Below are positions 5,054 to 35,340 of a stretch of DNA of 64,000 bases, piece by piece. Numbering within the stretch: position 1 is the first letter of the stretch; each line of letters opens with the position of its first letter. Origin of the DNA: Bryobacterales bacterium. Lineage in GTDB: Bacteria > Acidobacteriota > Terriglobia > Bryobacterales > Bryobacteraceae. Made by a program: the position numbers and the translations under genes. The stretch spans positions 124,001-188,000 of the forward strand of contig JADZCM010000001.1 of the NCBI GenBank assembly GCA_020851555.1, given 5' to 3'. A model generated the notes under the pieces. The model was not told the origin of the DNA and did no database searches. It was given only the letters and a program-made list of their open reading frames with translations.

Positions 5054-5204
5054 TCTCCAGCATTTCCGCATTCGATCATTCCGGGGAAACCCGCCCTTCG
5101 GCGCGCACATCCCATAGGTAGACAGAGGAAGGCTTTCGGATGGAATCCGGATTGCTCCAGGGCTGGGAGAATACGGAAACCGGAAGTCTTGGGGAGTGCC
5201 TGTG

Positions 5205-6383
5205 ATGGTCCGAGTCAATGTGCCTCTGGATACAAGCCGCACGGGATACGAAGCGGAAACGCTCCGGCAGCACCTGCGGAGATTGATCGTCGGGCAGGAC
5301 GAGGCGGTCAGCCGGATCGTGGACGTCTACCAGATGTATCTGGCCGGGATGAACAGCCCGGACCGCCCCGTGGGCAGCTTCCTTTTCCTGGGACCGACCG
5401 GGTCGGGCAAGACCCGAATCGTGGAGGCCGCGGCCGAAGGGCTGCTGGGAAACTCCCGTGCCGTCATCAAGATCGACTGCGCGGAGTTCCAGCACAGCCA
5501 TGAGATCGCCAAGCTGATCGGATCGCCTCCCGGCTACCTCGGGCACCGTGAGACACACCCCCTGCTGAGCCAGGAGATTCTGAGCCAGTACCACACCGAT
5601 AAGGTCAAGCTCAGTTTCGTGCTGTTCGACGAGATCGAGAAGGCCAGCGATGCGCTCTGGAACCTGCTGCTCGGCATTCTGGACAAAGCCACTCTGACTT
5701 TGGGCGACAACCGCCGGGTGGACTTCTCCCGGACCGTGGTTTTTCTGACGAGCAACCTCGGCGCGAGCCAGATGAGTTCCATTCTGAGACCCAGTCTGGG
5801 ATTCGCGGCTTCCGAAGTGAGCCGCGCCGTGGACGAAGGGACCCTGTCGGGCGAGCTCTCCGGCAAGATCGCCCGCGCCGGGGTGGAAGCGGCGCGGAGG
5901 CGGTTCACTCCCGAGTTCATGAACCGGCTGGACAGGGTAGTGGTATTCCAGCCGCTCGGCCAGGCCGAACTGCGGCAAGTTCTTGACATCGAACTGCGTC
6001 TGTTGCAGCAGAGGGTCTTCGACTCGGTGGGGCCGCACTATTTCGTGTTCACTGCGTCCCCGGAGGCGAGGGAGTACCTGTTGAAAGAGGGCACCGACGT
6101 CAAGTACGGCGCCCGCCACCTGAGGCGCGCCATCGAGAGGCTGGTGGTGCAGCCCCTGTCGAGCCTGATCGCCACGGACCAATTGAGCAACGGCGACCTT
6201 GTGCATATCGACTTCGACGCGGCCTTGGGGGAGTTGACCTTCCGGAAGCAGGCCGAGGGAATGGGGATGCAGGCCATGGCCGAGATGGCGGGTGTGATTC
6301 CGGGCGCGGCGGTGACGGCTGCCAGCGCCGCCGCCGCCGAGAACCCGCGGGCCGCTTCCGCGCGGGGCTCCCGCCGGGCCTGA
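5205..6383 (+). CDS. Single-ring AAA+ ATPase resembling the ClpB/ClpA second ring
   Basis: 392 residues, corresponding to only the D2 ring plus the small C-terminal domain of ClpB/ClpA. Visible motifs: Walker A GPTGSGKT (about 63-70), pore loop PPGYLGH (about 108-114), Walker B FVLFDEIEK (about 138-146), sensor 1 FLTSNLGA, arginine finger region FTPEFMNRLDRVVVF, sensor 2 GARHLRRAIERL. All ATPase residues look intact, so it is probably an active unfoldase or remodeller. There is no N-terminal substrate domain, no first ring and no ClpX zinc domain. The ATG at 5205 has GGGGA at proper distance; a GTG at 5196 is less likely. The tail is Ala-rich and its stop codon lies inside the left copy of a 172-bp repeat, so the original end may have been altered. 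It follows the Spy-like gene by 151 bp on the same strand. Confidence 0.85.
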   Translation: MVRVNVPLDTSRTGYEAETLRQHLRRLIVGQDEAVSRIVDVYQMYLAGMNSPDRPVGSFLFLGPTGSGKTRIVEAAAEGLLGNSRAVIKIDCAEFQHSHEIAKLIGSPPGYLGHRETHPLLSQEILSQYHTDKVKLSFVLFDEIEKASDALWNLLLGILDKATLTLGDNRRVDFSRTVVFLTSNLGASQMSSILRPSLGFAASEVSRAVDEGTLSGELSGKIARAGVEAARRRFTPEFMNRLDRVVVFQPLGQAELRQVLDIELRLLQQRVFDSVGPHYFVFTASPEAREYLLKEGTDVKYGARHLRRAIERLVVQPLSSLIATDQLSNGDLVHIDFDAALGELTFRKQAEGMGMQAMAEMAGVIPGAAVTAASAAAAENPRAASARGSRRA

Positions 6384-6546
6384 GGGGCTGCACTTCCGTA
6401 CGCACCGTGGGATGGACTCCCGCCGGCCCCTCCGCGAGCCCGGCCAAGGCTCCCGCCCAAATCAGCTTGCCGCCAAAGTACACGTTATGGTCGGTCTCGA
6501 CCGGTCCCCGTACGCCGCCGGCAGGTTCCCCTCGGCGATCTCTTCG
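6375..6546 (+). repeat. 172-bp direct repeat, left copy
   Basis: Matches 11934-12105 in the same orientation with about four mismatches and no gaps (constant offset 5559). It begins at the stop codon region of the AAA+ gene and ends 30 bp before transposase homology begins. The complementary strand contains an open reading stretch with the words NVYFGGKLIWAGALAGL, but no start, RBS or family is evident, so it is treated as a non-coding dispersed repeat. Confidence 0.9.
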
Positions 6547-6577
6547 ACTCTTCCCACGGCAGCGCCGGTTTGCGAGC

Positions 6578-7486
6578 CGGTACACGGCGGCCGACGCCGA
6601 ATTGCTGGCGCGGGTGGACGAGGCGCACGAGACGCTCAGCGGGCCGGCCACGTAGAAGATACTGTAACGGGAGTGCTACGACTTTGGCGACCAGCGCTAC
6701 CAGCGCTTGGCGCGCATTTCGGTGGCTCACCTGTACCGTTTGCGGCAGAGTCGGAGCTACCGCCAGCAGCGCGTGCGCTACCAGAAAACCCGGCCGACGG
6801 CGGTGGCCATCGGCGAGCGGCGCCGGCCGGACCCGCAAGGCCGGCCGGGGTTTCTGCGGGTGGACACGGTGCATCAGGGCGACCGGGATGGGGAGAAGGG
6901 GCTCTATCACATCAACGCCGTGGACGAGGTGACGCAGTGGCAGATCGTGGGAGCCACCGCGCACATCAGCGAAGCCTGGCTGGAACCGGTGCTGGCGGCC
7001 CTGCTGGAGCAGTTCCCGTTTCAGCGGCGGAGTTTTCATTCCGGCAATGGCAGCGAGTTCATCAACCAGACGGTGGCCCGGCTGCTGAACAAACTGCTGG
7101 TGGAGCAGACCAAGTCGCAGCCGCGGCACTCCAACGACAACGGCCTGGTGGAAGGCAAGAATGGGGCGGTGATCCGGAAGCACATCGGCTATGGGCACAT
7201 CGCTGCGGAGCATGCCGAAGCGTTCCAGGCATTCTACCGGGAGCATTTCAACCCCTACCTGAATTTCCACCGGCCCTGCGGCGGCCGTGGCATTAAAGCG
7301 GCAACTGCAATTCGCCCACCCAACCTGCAACTGAATCCGCTTGAGGAAGAGCCCGGCGTCAGCACGCTGGAGACCGCCGCGCGAAGCGAGCGCGAACCGC
7401 TGCCCGAGCCGGCGCCCGTGCGGACCGGCGAAAAGGGACGGCCGCGGCCCGGCACCGTGCAAGCACTTACCGGGCCGCGACCATAA
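6578..7486 (+). pseudogene. Degenerate DDE transposase (integrase-core type)
   Basis: Reads as one frame interrupted by two stop codons, TAG at 6653 and TAA at 6665. Before them stands a helical segment (RYTAADAELLARVDEAHETL); after them the text continues with the YDFGDQRYQRLARISVAHLY region, then an integrase core: LRVDTVHQGD (first Asp), then FHSGNGSEFIN where the family has FHSDNGSEFIN, then the Glu in LVEGKNGAVIRKHIGYGH. So the second catalytic Asp is Gly. After HRPCG near 7280 the normal C-terminus is replaced by unrelated Pro/Glu/Arg-rich sequence, suggesting a deletion. Three independent lesions make this a dead element. Its stop lies 11 bp from the end of the convergent receptor gene. 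No inverted terminal repeats were found. Confidence 0.85.
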
Positions 7487-7496
7487 GGAGCGGCGT

Positions 7497-10466
7497 CTAG
7501 AACATATACCGCAACATGAACTGGATCTGCCGCGCCGTGCCCACCCCGATGGCCCGGTTCATGGGCGACGTGATGCGTCCGAAAGTTCCCGGCGAGGAGA
7601 AATCCGCCTTCGGCGTGCCCAGGTGTACCCGGTTGGGCAGGTTGAAGAACTCCGCCCGGAACGTGATGCGGTTCCTCTCGTTGATGTTGAAGTTCTTGCT
7701 CAGGGAAAGGTCGAACATGTTGACGCCAGGCCCGCGGCCCAGGTTGCGGCCCGCGTTGCCCCACATCCCGACCTTCGGCATGGCGAACGCCTCGATGTTG
7801 AACCAGTGGTCCAGCGTCTGGTCAGCCGCATGGACCGGAATGCCCGGCACCACGTCTGGTCGCTGTTTCTTGTTGTTGCCGTCCGGCAGGTCCTTCGAGC
7901 TGCGGCTGACCGTGAAATTCACGGTGCGGCCGGTGCGCATGGCATGGATGACGCTCATCTCCCATCCACCGACGACCTTGCCCGGCATGCCGCTCCACCT
8001 CAGGAAACGTTGGCCGGGGCCAAAAGGCAGGTTCCAGAATACGTTAGTGGTTATGGTATGACGGATATCGTAGTCGCTGTCCGCCTTCTCCGCCCGCCGG
8101 TTGTTCACGTTTTGTGGCGCGACGGATTCGCCCCCGCCGATCATGCCGTCGTTCAGCGAGTGGCCCCACATGTACTCGGTCTGCCACATCAGGCCGTTCG
8201 TCATACGCCGTTTCAAGGAAATCTGCATGGCGTTGAAGTTGCTGTTGCCGTCGTCTCCCCGGCTGTCGAACTGCCCGAAGGTAGGCCACGGCCGCTTGCC
8301 GGTTGCCGGATCGATCAGGTTCAGATAGGTGCGGGAAAGGATCTTGTGCGCATTGTTCGCGACGTATCCTACCTGCATGGTAAACGCCGCGGGTAACATC
8401 TGCTGGATGGATAACCCCCAGTGCTGGGTATACATGTCGCGGCGGTTCGGGGCCATGTGCCGTGGCGTCAACCCCTGTGCCTTGGCTTGCGGGATGAAGG
8501 CCTCGAGCGGGAAGGAAAGCCCGGGGGCGTCCTTGGCGGTCAGCTTGAACTTCTCCTGCGTGCTGTCGATGGCTCCCATCATGTCGTCGAACTGGCCGGG
8601 GCCGTAGTACACTCCGTAGCCGCCGCGGAACACGGTCTGCTGTTTCAGCCGGTCGGGCGCCCAGGCGAAGCTGAAGCGCGGCGCAATGTTATCCCAATCC
8701 GGCTTATATGGCGGAGTGCCGGGCGGTGCGAAATTGCCGATCTTCGTGTCAAAGACCAGGATGCGATCCTTGACCTCCTTCATCACCGAGTAGTATTCGT
8801 ACCGCACTCCCAAGTTCAACGTGAGCGTGCGCGTGGCTTTCAACTCGTCCTGCGCGTAGCCGAATAGCAGGGTCCGCCGTCCGCCCCTGGTGGCCATCGC
8901 CGCATCGATGCTCAGACTGTCCAGGCGGTTGTTCACGAAGTCGTTTACCGAGGCGAAACTGGCCGATGTGGCGGACGTCCACCCGACGTTGGCGTGGATG
9001 CGGCGCACCTCGCCTCCGAACTTCAGGGTGTGCCGTCCTCTGAACCAGCTCAGGTTATCGAGCAGCGAATAGCTGACTGCCATCTCGCTGTTGCCTTTGC
9101 TGTCCGGCAGGTCGGTGAGGCCGGGAACGGTGAACTTCCCGAACATGAAGCCGTAATTCAGTTCCTTGCGCGGCACCCGGTGGATGCCCGCCCGCGTCTC
9201 ATTCACCACCGCCGGGCTGAAGGTGCGCTGCAACTGCACCACCAGGTCCTTGGTGTACTGGTCCTCCGTGTCCGCCCACTCCGGGCGGAAGCCGCCGGGA
9301 GTCCACAGCAGCGCCTTGTTGGCGTTGTACCGGCCGAACAGCGTGGTGCGCTCGGTCAGGTTGTAGTCCATCCGGAACATCATGCTGTCCTCGGTGTCTT
9401 TCACCGACCATTCCTGGGTGAGTTCATCGACGTTGGGGTCCTTGGTGACGCGGTTGCCGAGCGGATAGGCGTCGATCATTCCGCGCAGGTTCGGCGTGGT
9501 CACACGCGAGCGCAGCGCCGGGCTGGGCACGGTGTAGGTGTAGACCGAACTCTGCCGCTGCCGCAAGCCTTCGTAGTTGCCGAAGAAAAACATCTTGTCG
9601 TGCTTGATGGGCCCGCCGAAGCTGCCGCCGAACTGGTTGAGACGGAACGGCGCCAGCTTCGGCCCGTCGAATATGGTGCGCGCGTCCAGCGCGCTGTTGC
9701 GGAAATACTCGAACAGCCCTCCGTGAAAATCGTTGGAGCCGCTCTTTGAAACCAGGTGCACCTGGCCGCCCATGCCGCCGCCGGACTCGGCCGAATACAA
9801 CGAGGAGCTGACCTTGAACTCCGAAATCGAGTCCATGCTGACGATGAGCCGTGCTTTGGCGCCGTAAGTCGGGTCCTTGATGGCGGTGTTGTCCACGCCG
9901 TCGAAGGTCCAGTTGTTGTCGTCGTTGGCGCGTCCGGCGAAACGGACGTCGTCCAAGAGCCCCTCGCCGGTATTCACTGCTCCGGCCGCCAGCACCATCA
10001 GGCTGGCCCAACTGCGCCCGTTGATGGGCATCTGGCTCACCTGCTCGGATGAAACCACGGTGCCGATCTCGGCCGAAGCGCGGTCGAGCGGCGCGGCGAC
10101 GTCGCGCACCTCAATGGTGGTGGCGGTGGAGGCGATCTCCAGTTTCGCGTCCAGCGTCAGGGTCTGGCCCACCAGCAACTGGACTTTCTCGAATTGCACC
10201 GTCCGGAAACCCGGGGCCTGGATCCTGACGGTATAGATGCCGATGGGCAGTTGCGGGATCATATAGGCGCCGCTCGCGCCCACTTCCCCCTCGCGGCCGA
10301 GACCCGAGCTCTCGTGCTCGACCAGAACCTTGGCTCCCAGAATCACGGCGCCGGTGGCGTCGGTCACGGTGCCGGTGATCGCACCGCGGTCCAATTGCGC
10401 CACGGCGGGCGCCGCGAAAAGTGCTAGCGCGATTGAGACTACAATGAAAAATCGTTCGTAGTTCAT
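7497..10466 (-). CDS. TonB-dependent outer-membrane receptor, Oar-like with carboxypeptidase-regulatory domain
   Basis: 989 residues. Signal peptide (about 1-23, ending PAVAQ), then a carboxypeptidase-regulatory-like Ig fold (about 28-110, GAITGTVTDATGAVI and GIYTVRIQAPGF), a plug domain (SEQVSQMPINGR, NWTFDGVDN) and a long beta barrel with Oar-type words (SGSNDFHGGLFEYFRNSALD, FGGSFGGPIKHDKMFFFGNY). It ends in the aromatic residue typical of barrels (RYMF). These receptors import large or bound nutrients with TonB energy and are strongly expanded in Acidobacteria. The ATG at 10466 follows AAGGAG. It lies 35 bp downstream of a phytase gene on the same strand, so phytate-derived or phosphate-linked ligands are the likely cargo; the ligand cannot be read from the sequence. 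Confidence 0.93.
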   Translation of the reverse strand: MNYERFFIVVSIALALFAAPAVAQLDRGAITGTVTDATGAVILGAKVLVEHESSGLGREGEVGASGAYMIPQLPIGIYTVRIQAPGFRTVQFEKVQLLVGQTLTLDAKLEIASTATTIEVRDVAAPLDRASAEIGTVVSSEQVSQMPINGRSWASLMVLAAGAVNTGEGLLDDVRFAGRANDDNNWTFDGVDNTAIKDPTYGAKARLIVSMDSISEFKVSSSLYSAESGGGMGGQVHLVSKSGSNDFHGGLFEYFRNSALDARTIFDGPKLAPFRLNQFGGSFGGPIKHDKMFFFGNYEGLRQRQSSVYTYTVPSPALRSRVTTPNLRGMIDAYPLGNRVTKDPNVDELTQEWSVKDTEDSMMFRMDYNLTERTTLFGRYNANKALLWTPGGFRPEWADTEDQYTKDLVVQLQRTFSPAVVNETRAGIHRVPRKELNYGFMFGKFTVPGLTDLPDSKGNSEMAVSYSLLDNLSWFRGRHTLKFGGEVRRIHANVGWTSATSASFASVNDFVNNRLDSLSIDAAMATRGGRRTLLFGYAQDELKATRTLTLNLGVRYEYYSVMKEVKDRILVFDTKIGNFAPPGTPPYKPDWDNIAPRFSFAWAPDRLKQQTVFRGGYGVYYGPGQFDDMMGAIDSTQEKFKLTAKDAPGLSFPLEAFIPQAKAQGLTPRHMAPNRRDMYTQHWGLSIQQMLPAAFTMQVGYVANNAHKILSRTYLNLIDPATGKRPWPTFGQFDSRGDDGNSNFNAMQISLKRRMTNGLMWQTEYMWGHSLNDGMIGGGESVAPQNVNNRRAEKADSDYDIRHTITTNVFWNLPFGPGQRFLRWSGMPGKVVGGWEMSVIHAMRTGRTVNFTVSRSSKDLPDGNNKKQRPDVVPGIPVHAADQTLDHWFNIEAFAMPKVGMWGNAGRNLGRGPGVNMFDLSLSKNFNINERNRITFRAEFFNLPNRVHLGTPKADFSSPGTFGRITSPMNRAIGVGTARQIQFMLRYMF

Positions 10467-10501
10467 TGGATCTCCTTATCCTGTTCTTTCCCGGCGCGGC
10501 A

Positions 10502-11623
10502 TCACCGCCGCCGGTCTCCAGTCGCAAAGCCGGCCTTCGCCATTCGCAGCTTGGGCGTCCCGGAATGTGCCACATCCTCCCAGCGGTAGAGCAGAAAATT
10601 GCGGTCCTTGCTGTTCATTGCCACCAGCAGACCGTGGGGAAACCGCGGTCCAAGCGCGGCGGAGGTGACCTCTATCCCATCGGTGGAATGGGCGCCGCCG
10701 GCGGCGATCTTCAACAACTCCGAGTGGTCGTGGGGTTTGCCCGGCGCTCCTTCGCGCCGGTAAATCCGATATTGGCTGCTGCCTTTGATCTGGTCCGTGC
10801 ACACAATGTAGCCGGTTCGGGCGTCACGTTCGTAGATGGCGATGCCTTCGCGGTCGCCTGAAAAGCCGGTCTGCCCGAAGAGCGCCAACTCAAGCGGCGC
10901 GCCGGAATGGCTGGGGTCGGCATGATACTTGTGGATGCCACAGCGCTCGTCGGCGTAGTACACGTAACCGAGAGTGTCGTCCACGGCAACCGCTTCGATC
11001 TCGCCCGCGCCGCTGAAGTTCCCGAAACTGCGCACCCAGGCGGCGCGCACGCGGCCCTCGCCGTTGTCCTCCAGCCGGTACTGCTCCAGGTAGCCTTCAC
11101 GCGGACCCGTCTTGGGCGCGACGATGGCGAACACCACGCCGTCACGCGGGCGCCGGTAAAGGGCAATGCCCATCGGCTCCGCGCCGGCGCCTGTGCGGCC
11201 CGCCAATACTCCGGTTTGTCCAAAGGCGGTGATGTCGGTGATGCCCGAGCCGTCCGCCGCGATACGAAACACCCGCAACCGCCGCTGCAGCCGTTCGGTG
11301 ACCACCGCGATATCCACCGTGCCGCCACCCAGGCGCAACCCGTACTCGACATCCACGTTGTTCGGCCGGTCCAACTCGCCCGCCACCTGACGGATCGCAC
11401 CGTCCAAGCCGAAAACTACCAGGGCGCCGCGTGGGGATTTTACCTTGTTTGTACCGAGGATCAGGCTGCGGGCGGGATCCGAGGGGTGAATCCAGATGGC
11501 AGGGTCGTCGGCGTCGTCCGCTACAGCGGCCGTAGCCAGAACGGCCCGGATCTCAACCGGCCCTTGCACGCGCGGTGCGGCCCATGCCACAAACAACGTA
11601 CAGATGACGCACGTCCTTAGCAC
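10502..11623 (-). CDS. Beta-propeller phytase (3-phytase), secreted
   Basis: 373 residues with a signal peptide (about 1-21, VICTLFVAWAAPRVQG). The body reads as a six-bladed beta-propeller phytase: ADDADDPAIWIHPSDP near the N-terminus, then LDRPNNVDVEYGL, AVDDTLGYVYYADERCGIHKY, SGDREGIAIYE and SSQYRIYRREG, with acidic calcium-binding residues in the repeats. Such enzymes release phosphate from phytate outside the cytoplasm and need calcium. The start is a GTG at 11623 with GGGGGTG upstream. It is the first gene of an operon with the TonB receptor; phytase genes of this family are often found next to TonB receptor genes. A perfect TTGACA (complement of 11669-11674) and a TATGAT (complement of 11650-11655) lie upstream but only 13 nt apart, so the promoter is uncertain. 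Confidence 0.9.
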   Translation of the reverse strand: MLRTCVICTLFVAWAAPRVQGPVEIRAVLATAAVADDADDPAIWIHPSDPARSLILGTNKVKSPRGALVVFGLDGAIRQVAGELDRPNNVDVEYGLRLGGGTVDIAVVTERLQRRLRVFRIAADGSGITDITAFGQTGVLAGRTGAGAEPMGIALYRRPRDGVVFAIVAPKTGPREGYLEQYRLEDNGEGRVRAAWVRSFGNFSGAGEIEAVAVDDTLGYVYYADERCGIHKYHADPSHSGAPLELALFGQTGFSGDREGIAIYERDARTGYIVCTDQIKGSSQYRIYRREGAPGKPHDHSELLKIAAGGAHSTDGIEVTSAALGPRFPHGLLVAMNSKDRNFLLYRWEDVAHSGTPKLRMAKAGFATGDRRR

Positions 11624-11933
11624 GTCATCGTCACCCCCGCGTTTGACGTATCATAGGCGCGACATGTTTGTCAAGTTCGAGTCTTGTCTCGCCAGGAACT
11701 TCGCACAGGGGACAGATGGGGCTTGCTTGAAGGGCCAAACGTCGGGGTGCGACGGGTCAGGCCGGCAAAGCTGAGATTCACAAGGCGGGTTTTAGCCTTC
11801 TGGGGGGTGGCTCTACGGGGGGTGACAGCGGCTGCGGCGTGGTTCGAGGAACAGGGGGTCGACCCCCGGCAGGAGGCTGAGGTCAGACTGGAAGGGCGGT
11901 CTTCAGAGAGCGGGGGGGGCGCCGGTGGGCGCG

Positions 11934-12105
11934 CGGGCCTGAGGGGCTGCACTTCCTTACGCACCGTGGGATGGACTCCCGCCGGCCCCGCCGCGAGCCC
12001 GGCCAAGGCTCCCGCCCAAATCAGCTTGCCGCCAAAGTACACGTTATGGCCGGTCTCGACCGGTCCCCGTACGCCGCCGGCAGGTTCCCCTCGGCGTTCT
12101 CTTCG
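11934..12105 (+). repeat. 172-bp direct repeat, right copy
   Basis: Same sequence and orientation as 6375-6546, about 168 of 172 positions identical by eye. Sequence on either side of the two copies is unrelated. Together the copies bracket the dead transposase and the receptor/phytase operon. Confidence 0.9.
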
Positions 12106-12141
12106 TATCTCTGAAGTTAGTTCACCGGCACCGCGTGCGGG

Positions 12142-12216
12142 GCGGTCCCCCTGGACCGCGACCGGGGCCTCCGCCGGCCTCGCTCGCGTGCGCCGCGGCC
12201 GGACCGGGGGTCCGGC
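12142..12216. repeat. Pair of GC-rich perfect palindromes
   Basis: Two hairpins: GCGGTCC/GGACCGC (12142-12148 with 12153-12159, 4-nt loop) and GCCGGACC/GGTCCGGC (12198-12205 with 12209-12216, 3-nt loop). They share the core GGACC/GGTCC. No T-tract follows, so these do not look like ordinary terminators; they look like a structured dispersed (REP-like) element. Only one block is present in the window. Confidence 0.45.
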
Positions 12217-12358
12217 GCAGACGAGGGCGTCCGCCCCACAACGGTGAGCGCACTTGTGAGACAGCAAGCTAACGCCAAGGCCCAAGCGTCAAAGGCGGCC
12301 AAGCGGGCGCGTTACGTCCGCCTCGCGCCCGGCGGCTTCCGCCTTCCCGCCCAAGCGT

Positions 12359-13120
12359 TCAGAACTTCGGCACGCGGCGCAGGATGGCGGCGGTGTCGCC
12401 GCCCGCCGGCAGGGTCACGAAATGGACCGGCTTCCAGGTCTTGTCCAGCGCGCCGATGTAGCGGGCGCTGTCGCGGTCCACCCCCATCAGCACCAGCGTG
12501 TAGGACTGGTCCTTGTAGCGCAGGGCGCGGTACTGGAGCCCCGTGCCGGTGTCGGGACGCCAGTGGTCTTCGGAGGGAACGCCGAGCTTGCGCACGATCG
12601 AGTTGTAATCGTCGCTTCCGTCCAGTTGCAGCGCCAACTGCTCCATCCCGCGGTAACTCACCGGGCGGTTCATGACCACAACCAGAACAATCAGCGCCGA
12701 AATGGCGAGCGCCAGCGCGCCGCCGATCAGGCGGCCGATCTTGGCCTCGGCGCCGGGAGCGGGACCCTCCGCGCCGGAGCGCGGCGGCGCGTCCGGCGTC
12801 CGTCCGGCGCCGGCCGGCGCGCCCCCCATCCTGGGCATGGCCAGCAGCCGCCGGTCTCGCGGCCACACGGCTCCCGCCTTGTACTCCAGTTCCTTGCGCA
12901 GGCCCACGATGACCACCGGCGCGTCCACGCGGACCACCTCGCCCACCAGGCGCCGCGGGATCCAGACCTCCTGGCCCGTCTTGGCGTTGACGACGAGGAT
13001 CTCCGACCAGGTGCCGCGCCCCATCCGCCATTCGTTGTGCTCGAAGTTCAGGATGGCGGGATAGAAAGAGAAACTCCGGTCCCCCAGGTTGTCGAGCGTG
13101 AGGCCGTCAGGGTCGGGCAT
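12359..13120 (-). CDS. Single-pass membrane protein of unknown function
   Basis: 253 residues. The first 95 residues form a soluble N-terminal part (WIPRRLVGEVVRVDAPVVIV), followed by a Gly/Ala/Pro-rich linker, one transmembrane helix (LIGGALALAISALIVLVVVM, about 132-151) and an extracytoplasmic domain of about 100 residues (DDYNSIVRKLGVPSEDHW and YKDQSYTLVLMG). The last domain faintly resembles the BamE/SmpA fold pattern of a short helix plus lG-x-P turn, but that is only an impression. A TAATAT box lies 12 nt before the ATG on the minus strand and there is no clear ribosome site. Divergent from maeB. Confidence 0.7.
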   Translation of the reverse strand: MPDPDGLTLDNLGDRSFSFYPAILNFEHNEWRMGRGTWSEILVVNAKTGQEVWIPRRLVGEVVRVDAPVVIVGLRKELEYKAGAVWPRDRRLLAMPRMGGAPAGAGRTPDAPPRSGAEGPAPGAEAKIGRLIGGALALAISALIVLVVVMNRPVSYRGMEQLALQLDGSDDYNSIVRKLGVPSEDHWRPDTGTGLQYRALRYKDQSYTLVLMGVDRDSARYIGALDKTWKPVHFVTLPAGGDTAAILRRVPKF

Positions 13121-29432: not shown

Positions 29433-29558
29433 GAGCTGTTCACGCTCCTCAAAAGCTCGGGCTACGGCCGCTGCACCCTGTGCGAGGCGCAGGAAAGCGC
29501 GGAACCGGAACGCTTCCTGCGGTACTACAAGGCGCTGTGGAGCGAGTTGGCCCGCTGA
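29433..29558 (+). pseudogene. Degenerate copy of the isomerase 3' end (126-bp direct repeat)
   Basis: Same length and frame as 23527-23652 and ends with the same stop. Eight substitutions; six change an amino acid (Asp to Gly, Tyr to Cys, Val to Ala, Pro to Ala, Asn to Ser, Val to Ala) and two are silent, which points to loss of selection. No start codon or upstream gene body is present. It sits between the FAD subunit gene and the promoter of the CorA-like gene. Confidence 0.9.
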
Positions 29559-29575
29559 GCCGGGTTGGGTATAAT
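29547..29575 (+). promoter_or_regulatory. Sigma-70-type promoter of the CorA-like gene
   Basis: TTGGCC (29547-29552) and a perfect TATAAT (29570-29575) are separated by exactly 17 nt. The start codon is seven bases after the -10 box, so the mRNA should begin at or next to the ATG. The -35 lies within the degenerate isomerase copy. Confidence 0.6.
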
Positions 29576-31299: not shown

Positions 31300-32208
31300 T
31301 CACCCCGCTTTCTGGTGCATCGGACACCCCGTCTCGGAAAAGCTGCAGTTGTCATGTTCGAACTGGATGGTGGTGTGCTCGAGGTGGAAACGGCGCAGCA
31401 GTTCTGCGTTGATGCGCCCCAGAATAGTCTCGCTTTCCGAGGGAGGCACGTCCGCGATGCGCACATGGCAGCTCAGGGCGTGGGTGTGGGAGGACAGGCT
31501 CCAGACGTGCAGGTCGTGGACGTCCAGGACGCCCTCGACACCCCGTATGGCGCCGGCTACCGAGGGCAGGTCCATGCCGCCGGGCAATCCCTCGAGCAGT
31601 ATGTTCAAAGCCTCCCGGATGACGTCCCAGGCGGTCCAGACGATCAGGGCGCCGATCAGGATCGAAAGAAGCGGATCCACCCGCTGCCAGCCCGTGAACC
31701 GGATCAGGACCGAGCCGAAGAGGATTCCCACCGAGCCGAGGGCGTCGCCCAGCATGTGCAGGTACGCGCTGCGGATGTTGAGGTCCCGCCGTTGATCGTG
31801 CCGCATGGCCCACATGATCGCCAGGTTGAGAACCAGGCCCAGCCCGGCCACCACGAACATGGCCGTTTCGTTCACGCTGCGCGGAGCGAGCAGCCTGCGG
31901 TAGCTCTCCCAGAAGATGAAACCGGCCAGCAGCAGCAGAGCGAGGGCGTTGACGAAGGCGGTCAGGACGCCGGCGCGGTGATACCCATAGGTCCGCACGT
32001 CGTCGGCCGGCTTGGCCTGCCAGTAGCAGCCAAGCCAGGCCAGGAGCAGGGCCAGGGCATCGGTGAAGTTATGTCCGGCGTCCGAGAGCAGCGCGAGGCT
32101 GCCTGCCTGTATGCCGGTCAGGGCCTCGACGGCTACGAACGCCACGGTGGCCGCAAGCGACCACTTCAGGACTCGAATGGTTCCAGGTTGGCGGGCGTGG
32201 TCGTGCAA
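31300..32208 (-). CDS. Cation diffusion facilitator (CzcD/ZitB-type metal efflux)
   Basis: 302 residues. Six transmembrane segments with the metal-site motifs SLALLSDAGHNFTDALAL in TM2 and HMLGDALGSVGILFGS in TM5, i.e. the H-x3-D and H-x3-D pairs of zinc-type CDF exporters. The cytoplasmic C-terminal domain (DVHDLHVWSLSSHTHALSCH) is the ferredoxin-like metal sensing fold, and the tail has two Cys (NCSFSETGCPMH) that may bind metal too. It moves zinc, cadmium or cobalt out in exchange for protons. The start is a TTG at 32208 with GAGG upstream and a TAAAAT box (complement of 32227-32232). Convergent with the CorA-like gene. Confidence 0.92.
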   Translation of the reverse strand: MHDHARQPGTIRVLKWSLAATVAFVAVEALTGIQAGSLALLSDAGHNFTDALALLLAWLGCYWQAKPADDVRTYGYHRAGVLTAFVNALALLLLAGFIFWESYRRLLAPRSVNETAMFVVAGLGLVLNLAIMWAMRHDQRRDLNIRSAYLHMLGDALGSVGILFGSVLIRFTGWQRVDPLLSILIGALIVWTAWDVIREALNILLEGLPGGMDLPSVAGAIRGVEGVLDVHDLHVWSLSSHTHALSCHVRIADVPPSESETILGRINAELLRRFHLEHTTIQFEHDNCSFSETGCPMHQKAG

Positions 32209-33877: not shown

Positions 33878-35340
33878 GTCTTCTCGCCACCAAGCCTCTG
33901 AGCCGCATCATCGCCGAATCCGAGGGCGGCGCCCACTCGCTGAAGCGCACGCTTGGCCCGATGAGCCTGGTGGCCCTGGGAATCGGCGCCATCATCGGCG
34001 CGGGGCTGTTCTCGCTGACGGGAATCGCGGCCGCCGAAAACGCCGGCCCGGCCATCGCCCTGTCCTTTCTAATAGCTGCCATCGGATGCGCTTTCGCCGG
34101 GCTTTGTTACAGCGAATTCTCGACCATGATTCCGATCGCCGGCAGCGCCTACACCTACGCGTACGCGACCATGGGCGAATTCCTGGCCTGGGTTATCGGC
34201 TGGGACCTGGTGCTGGAGTACGCGGTGGGCGCGGCGACCGTCTCCATAAGCTGGTCGGCTTACGTGGTGAGCCTGCTGCACGACTGGGGCATCAACCTCC
34301 CGCCCTACCTGGTGGCCTCGCCCTGGCAGCCTGTCCAGTTGCCCAACGGAGAACTGGTTCACGGGCTGGTGAACCTCCCGGCCGTGTTCATCATCTGCGT
34401 GATCTCGATCCTGCTGATGATCGGCATTCGGGAATCCGCCAGCGTGAACGCGGTGGTCGTCGTGATTAAAGTGGCGGTGGTGCTGGTGTTCATCGGGGTC
34501 GGGATCTGGTTCGTCAAGGGCTCCAACTACGTTCCCTTCATCCCGGAGAACACGGGCCGGTTCGGGGAGTTCGGCTGGAGCGGGGTGCTGCGGGCCGCGG
34601 GCGTGATCTTCTTCGCCTACATCGGATTCGATGCCGTCTCGACGGCGGCTCAGGAGGCGCAGGAACCGCAGAAGAACATGCCGATCGGGATCATCGGGTC
34701 GCTGATCGTCTGCACCATCCTGTACGTGGCGTTCGCCGTGGTGCTGACCGGTCTGGCGAACTACAAAGAGTTCAAGGGGATGGCGGCGCCGGTGGCGGTA
34801 GCCATCGCCTACACGCCGTACCTGTGGCTTCAGCCGTTGATCAAGCTGGCCATCATCGCCGGGTTCACCTCGGTGATCCTGGTGATGCTGCTCGGCCAGT
34901 CACGGGTCTTTTTCTCCATGTCGCGGGACGGGCTTCTCCCGGCCATCTTCTCGGATATCCACCCGAAGTTCCGCACCCCGTGGCGCTCGAATATCCTGTT
35001 CATGGTCTTCGTGAGCCTGTTCTCGGCCTTCGCGCCCATTTCGGTTGTGGGCCACATGACGAGTATCGGCACGCTGCTGGCCTTCGTCATCGTCTGCGCG
35101 GGGATCCTGGTCATGCGCCGGACACAGCCTGATGCGCCGCGTCCGTTCCGTACACCGTGGGTCCCGGTGGTGCCCGTGCTGGGTATCCTGGTGAACTTCG
35201 CCATGATGTACGGGTTGGGGTGGGAAAACTGGGCCCGGCTGGTGGGTTGGCTGATCATCGGGCTGTGTATCTATTTTAGTTACAGCCGCCACCACAGCCG
35301 CCTGCACAGGAGCCACGCGGCGCCTAACGTAAGAAGTTGA
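33874..35340 (+). CDS. APC-family amino acid permease (second of a pair, CAT-like)
   Basis: 488 residues, twelve or more transmembrane helices. Starts at ATG 33874 with AAGGAAA upstream; the frame is open before it but belongs to the previous gene. Motifs: GPMSLVALGIGAIIGAGLFS, YSEFSTMIPIAGSAYTYAYA, FFAYIGFDAVSTAAQEAQEP and the C-terminal MRRTQPDAPRPFRTPWVPVV. This matches the cationic/neutral amino acid transporter branch (YfnA/CAT). It is only distantly similar to the permease upstream, so not a recent duplication. The two genes overlap by four bases, which suggests joint expression. Its 3' end overlaps the convergent GltS-type gene by 17 bp. Confidence 0.93.
   Translation: MSLLATKPLSRIIAESEGGAHSLKRTLGPMSLVALGIGAIIGAGLFSLTGIAAAENAGPAIALSFLIAAIGCAFAGLCYSEFSTMIPIAGSAYTYAYATMGEFLAWVIGWDLVLEYAVGAATVSISWSAYVVSLLHDWGINLPPYLVASPWQPVQLPNGELVHGLVNLPAVFIICVISILLMIGIRESASVNAVVVVIKVAVVLVFIGVGIWFVKGSNYVPFIPENTGRFGEFGWSGVLRAAGVIFFAYIGFDAVSTAAQEAQEPQKNMPIGIIGSLIVCTILYVAFAVVLTGLANYKEFKGMAAPVAVAIAYTPYLWLQPLIKLAIIAGFTSVILVMLLGQSRVFFSMSRDGLLPAIFSDIHPKFRTPWRSNILFMVFVSLFSAFAPISVVGHMTSIGTLLAFVIVCAGILVMRRTQPDAPRPFRTPWVPVVPVLGILVNFAMMYGLGWENWARLVGWLIIGLCIYFSYSRHHSRLHRSHAAPNVRS

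What the first reader, a model, noticed from the sequence alone, without database searches (positions are those of the whole stretch)
6375..12105. 172-bp direct repeat brackets a phytase/TonB-receptor unit and a dead transposase
Copies at 6375-6546 and 11934-12105 agree at about 168 of 172 positions with no gap, in the same orientation, and the sequence outside them is unrelated. Between them lie a transposase relic and the receptor/phytase operon. The left copy starts at the stop codon of the AAA+ gene. The layout suggests the unit was inserted or shuffled through the repeat, or that a dispersed element landed twice. No target-site duplication could be proven.
Basis: partly seen in the sequence, partly recalled or inferred. 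Interest (0 to 1): 0.6.

Follow-up and report, generated by a model that had tools for sequence, protein, structure and literature searches.

The report
Duplicated RHS-gene relic beside phytase operon
The 172-base repeat is real, but it is no mobile element: it is a broken scrap of an RHS (polymorphic-toxin) gene, fused to the last bases of the neighbouring AAA+ gene, that was copied once during a local rearrangement, so it is largely ordinary genome scar tissue.

Summary
The repeat is confirmed: 6375-6546 and 11934-12105, 168/172 identical, ungapped, same strand, and the only two full copies in the 3.69-Mb genome. It is not a mobile element. About 117-125 of its bases are a minus-strand fragment of an RHS core gene (NVYFGGKLIW..). 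Three relatives of that fragment (82-86%) lie 95 kb away in an array of orphan RHS C-terminal modules. The first nine bases are the native 3' end of the AAA+ gene (conserved ..SRRA/G-stop). Both copies share one frameshift, so one already decayed AAA-end/RHS junction was duplicated, most simply from left (A) to right (B). Copy A abuts a twice-truncated IS transposase fragment (726 bp, 97% identical to an intact ORF on another contig). Copy B abuts a separate dispersed intergenic element. No relative has the flanking genes adjacent, so no empty site was found. The phytase and TonB-type receptor pair is conserved in Bryobacterales, but receptor-first (13 loci) or divergent (5); the window's phytase-first order occurs in none of the 18 paired loci. 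Best reading: rearrangement scars around a shuffled phytase locus, with the repeat duplicated as a by-product. The exact mechanism is not resolved. Low to moderate interest.

The parts
5196..6383 (+). AAA+ (ClpX/ClpB-like) gene; its last two codons and stop lie inside repeat copy A
   Evidence: Pfam AAA_2 and ClpB_D2-small; C-terminal ..SRRA/G-stop conserved in relatives
6375..6546 (.). repeat copy A, probably the older copy: 9 nt AAA end, about 35 nt intergenic, then a minus-strand RHS-core relic (about 6419-6543)
6547..6556 (.). 10-bp filler between copy A and the IS fragment
6557..7282 (+). internal fragment of an rve-type IS transposase, both ends missing, two in-frame stops
   Evidence: 97% identical (22 mismatches in 726) to C50:21939-22664, where the ORF is intact; Pfam rve
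7497..10466 (-). TonB-type outer-membrane receptor, second gene of the operon here
   Evidence: Pfam OMP_b-brl_4 and CarboxypepD_reg; groups with receptors paired to phytase in relatives
10502..11623 (-). beta-propeller phytase, first gene of the operon here
   Evidence: Pfam Phytase PF02333, E 3e-46; 60-68% identity to Bryobacterales phytases
11934..12105 (.). repeat copy B, most likely derived from A because it carries 9 nt of the AAA gene end
12106..12266 (.). separate dispersed intergenic element (X), starting where copy B ends
   Evidence: 87% copy on C44 and 80% copy on C36, each beginning within a few bases of a gene's stop codon
12359..13120 (-). conserved protein without a Pfam match; right flank of the block

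Best explanation
The repeat is a duplicated scar. A decayed fragment of an RHS core gene, of the kind left behind in arrays of orphan RHS C-terminal modules, came to lie directly downstream of the AAA+ gene (inferred). During a later rearrangement that placed the IS fragment and the phytase/receptor genes between the AAA+ gene and 12359-13120, a 172-bp stretch covering the AAA gene end and the RHS relic was copied, so that it now stands on both sides of the block. Shown: the RHS identity, the shared frameshift, the shared AAA end, the two-copy number, the truncated IS, and a gene order unlike relatives. Inferred: the direction (A to B) and the mechanism. Candidate mechanisms are Campbell-type integration of a circle carrying the block, or tandem duplication followed by deletion; duplication plus deletion would also account for the phytase-first order. 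The repeat has no function of its own beyond possibly serving as homology for recombination.
For: RHS identity: the inner part matches C1:29451, 31454 and 35144 at 82-86%. The 31454 copy lies in an ORF with TIGR03696 Rhs_assc_core, 61.5 bits against a cut-off of 32.5. Homologues of that ORF lie in relatives' frames of 1287-1872 aa; two were read and show YD-type repeats, one with NVYFAGR..TDRLGSV. One duplication: both copies lack the same base relative to RHS and share the same 44-nt non-RHS prefix. Direction..SRRA/G-stop is conserved at the AAA C-terminus, and copy B carries those 9 nt without the gene. Copy number two, absent from 60 relatives except for 22-44-nt matches. Rearrangement: AAA+ and 12359-13120 are not near each other in relatives; phytase-first in 0 of 18 relatives; the window receptor falls among receptor-first receptors. 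R divergence (2.3%) is similar to IS-fragment divergence (3.0%).
Against: No relative with an empty site was found. No remnants of an extra receptor or phytase copy were found in the intergenic stretches, which tandem duplication might have left. Copy B ends exactly where element X begins, which a simple target duplication or circle integration leaves unexplained. Misassembly of this draft genome at the repeat cannot be excluded without reads.
Confidence: 0.62

Rival explanations
1. A dispersed mobile element (MITE-like) inserted twice, once on each side of the operon.
For: Two near-identical copies with sharp edges.
Against: Only two full copies in the genome. The ends are not inverted repeats and there is no target-site duplication. 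Most of it is an RHS-core pseudogene fragment and it includes the AAA gene end.
Confidence: 0.05
2. The phytase/receptor block entered as a circular molecule that carried the 172-bp sequence and recombined with the resident copy (Campbell integration), leaving the repeat on both sides.
For: The geometry repeat-block-repeat in direct orientation is the expected product; the left edge runs natively into the AAA+ gene and only the block between is foreign to that junction.
Against: The circle would have had to carry the AAA gene end as well, so it must come from this lineage. No circle, integrase or donor was seen. 172 bp is short for homologous recombination. Phytase and receptor are native to Bryobacterales, not exotic.
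Confidence: 0.2
3. Two independent orphan RHS fragments that happen to flank the block, as left by repeated exchange of RHS C-terminal modules.
For: Orphan RHS fragments occur on the same contig, and such exchange is documented (PMC10539506, PMC5361080).
Against: A and B are 97.7% identical and share a frameshift and 44 nt of non-RHS sequence, whereas other RHS fragments in the genome are 82-86% identical to them.
Confidence: 0.07
4. Assembly artefact: a misjoin of the contig at the repeat.
For: The genome is a 57-contig draft, and a short repeat is a classical misjoin point.
Against: The copies differ at four positions and the contig is 242 kb; GC is similar across the block (61-69%).
Confidence: 0.06

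Closest known systems
Orphan RHS C-terminal modules (rearrangement hotspot, polymorphic toxins)
   Same: A partial RHS core followed by different tails, several copies on one contig, same core segment
   Different: The window copies are far shorter (about 120 nt of core), frameshifted, and carry no C-terminal domain or immunity gene
Beta-propeller phytase / TonB-dependent receptor locus of Bryobacterales
   Same: Same two gene families, about 35 bp apart, same strand
   Different: Phytase first and receptor second here; receptor first (13) or divergent (5) in the relatives found
Composite transposon or target-duplicated insertion
   Same: Direct repeats flank a gene block and a transposase relic lies inside
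   Different: The repeats are not insertion sequences; the transposase fragment lacks both IS ends; no short target duplication seen

Membership tests
RHS core (TIGR03696 context) | homology to the RHS core strand preceding DRLGSV | tested here: met
   82-86% DNA identity to the segment directly upstream of a TIGR03696 match in the same genome
RHS core (TIGR03696 context) | open reading frame through the core | tested here: not met
   one base missing in both copies, frames split: a relic, not a gene
MITE / dispersed element | many copies with the same ends | tested here: not met
   two full copies; none in 60 relatives beyond 22-44-nt matches
MITE / dispersed element | terminal inverted repeats and target-site duplication | tested here: not met
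   ends compared
Composite transposon | flanking complete insertion sequences | tested here: not met
   flanking repeats contain no transposase; IS fragment internal and truncated
Beta-propeller phytase | Pfam PF02333 match | tested here: met
   158.4 bits against a cut-off of 21
Beta-propeller phytase | phytate hydrolysis | not testable with these tools
   needs an assay

The most novel reading that the evidence does not exclude
Orphan RHS fragments act as recurrent homology for moving unrelated gene blocks, so that the phytase/receptor operon was circularly permuted and re-inserted through an RHS scrap.
Probability: 0.08. Interest if true: 0.5.

Novelty: new member of a known kind. Interest (0 to 1): 0.2.

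Why it matters
It removes a supposed mobile element from the list and shows how decayed polymorphic-toxin fragments can look like insertion boundaries. The permuted phytase/receptor order is a small, checkable case of operon shuffling in Acidobacteriota.

Tried and rejected
Dispersed element: rejected by copy number and content. RNA family: no Rfam match in the window. Plasmid origin of the repeat: no match among 72,556 plasmids. Tandem duplication remnants of phytase or receptor: only chance-level matches, best E 0.004 over dozens of queries and on the strand opposite to the operon. Empty site in relatives: none, because the flanking genes are not neighbours elsewhere. Pfam gives no match for three of the four orphan RHS-array proteins tested and only a sub-cut-off one (Wzt_C) for the fourth; NCBIfam does name the core. 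A literature search for phytase next to TonB receptors in open-access papers gave only three off-topic papers.

Full report
Observation. A whole-genome search finds only these two full copies (E 3e-88 and 4e-80) plus three partial relatives at contig 1 positions 29451-29568, 31454-31570 and 35144-35260, which match only the inner 117 bases or so at 82-86%. Sixty relatives have nothing beyond 22-44-base matches. One correction: the left copy starts six bases before the AAA+ stop codon.

What the repeat is. Read on the minus strand, the inner part encodes ..ETDHNVYFGGKLIWAGALAGLA... The partial relative at 31454 reads NTDYNVYFGGKLIWAEASAGLAAGPVGTDRLGSVVWRNG in an ORF that continues into a TIGR03696 RHS-associated core (61.5 bits, cut-off 32.5). 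Homologues in relatives lie in open frames of 1287, 1766 and 1872 residues. Two of these were read; both carry YD-type repeats, and one reads NVYFAGRSIILNDTAVVTDRLGSV. So the repeat is a piece of an RHS core. In both window copies one base is missing relative to the RHS genes (tcgag-acc against tcgaacac), which splits the frame, so it is a relic. The relatives at 29-35 kb of the contig form an array of partial RHS cores with different tails, as known for orphan RHS C-terminal modules (PMC10539506, PMC5361080).

One duplication, with a direction. The copies share the frameshift and a 44-base prefix that is not RHS. The first nine bases of that prefix, CGGGCCTGA, are the last two codons and stop of the AAA+ gene at copy A. 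Several relatives end the same protein in ..SRRG-stop or similar, so this is the native gene end. Copy B carries these nine bases without the gene, which favours A as the source. Nine matching bases by chance at this GC have a probability of roughly 1e-5 to 1e-4 (my estimate). Of the four differing positions, by the alignment, one (6431) looks changed in A and one (6491) changed in B.

The surroundings are a mosaic. Right of copy A, after ten bases of filler, lies an internal 726-bp fragment of an rve-type IS transposase, 97% identical to a copy with an intact ORF on contig 50, lacking both ends and holding two stops. Right of copy B, beginning at the base where the repeat ends, lies a separate dispersed intergenic element of about 160 bp with copies on contigs 44 and 36. 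Genes on either side of the block, the AAA+ gene and 12359-13120, are conserved in relatives but lie far apart there, and the other window neighbours do not follow them.

The phytase/receptor unit. Both genes are genuine and native to Bryobacterales. In 18 loci from relatives where the orthologous receptor is found beside the phytase, the receptor comes first on the same strand in 13 and the two are divergent in 5. In the window the phytase comes first. In the receptor tree the window falls in a group whose other ten members are all receptor-first (100/99), although its own branch is long and its composition unusual. The permuted order is therefore probably derived, which fits a rearrangement of this block.

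Mechanism. Shown: a pre-existing AAA-end/RHS-relic junction was duplicated once and now brackets a rearranged block. Inferred: the copying accompanied the rearrangement. Circle integration through the repeat, and tandem duplication followed by deletion, both give this geometry. Duplication plus deletion would explain the gene order more simply, but no remnants of deleted gene copies were found. The similar divergence of the repeat pair (2.3%) and of the IS fragment (3.0%) is compatible with one period of activity, no more.

Verdict. The 'dispersed element' reading is rejected, the 'shuffled' reading is partly supported, and a special role of the repeat is not shown. Interest is low to moderate.

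Noticed in passing
window 12106-12266: About 160-bp GC-rich intergenic element with further copies on C44 (87%) and C36 (80%), each starting within a few bases of a gene's stop codon; short pieces of it (40-48 nt) recur in two other genera.
   Followed up: partly
L006:7641-13120 (contig 1, about 29.6-35.1 kb): Array of orphan partial RHS cores with different tails; two tails carry HEALH / HELVH motifs that look like zinc-metallopeptidase sites.
   Followed up: partly
window 7497-11623: Phytase-first gene order, whereas 13 relatives are receptor-first and 5 divergent; the window receptor has an unusually long branch and odd amino-acid composition.
   Followed up: partly
L015 (contig 50, 21.6-22.9 kb): Intact ORF of the rve-type IS transposase of which the window holds a fragment; near-repeats of acaagatgagcctgaa lie upstream.
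   Followed up: no
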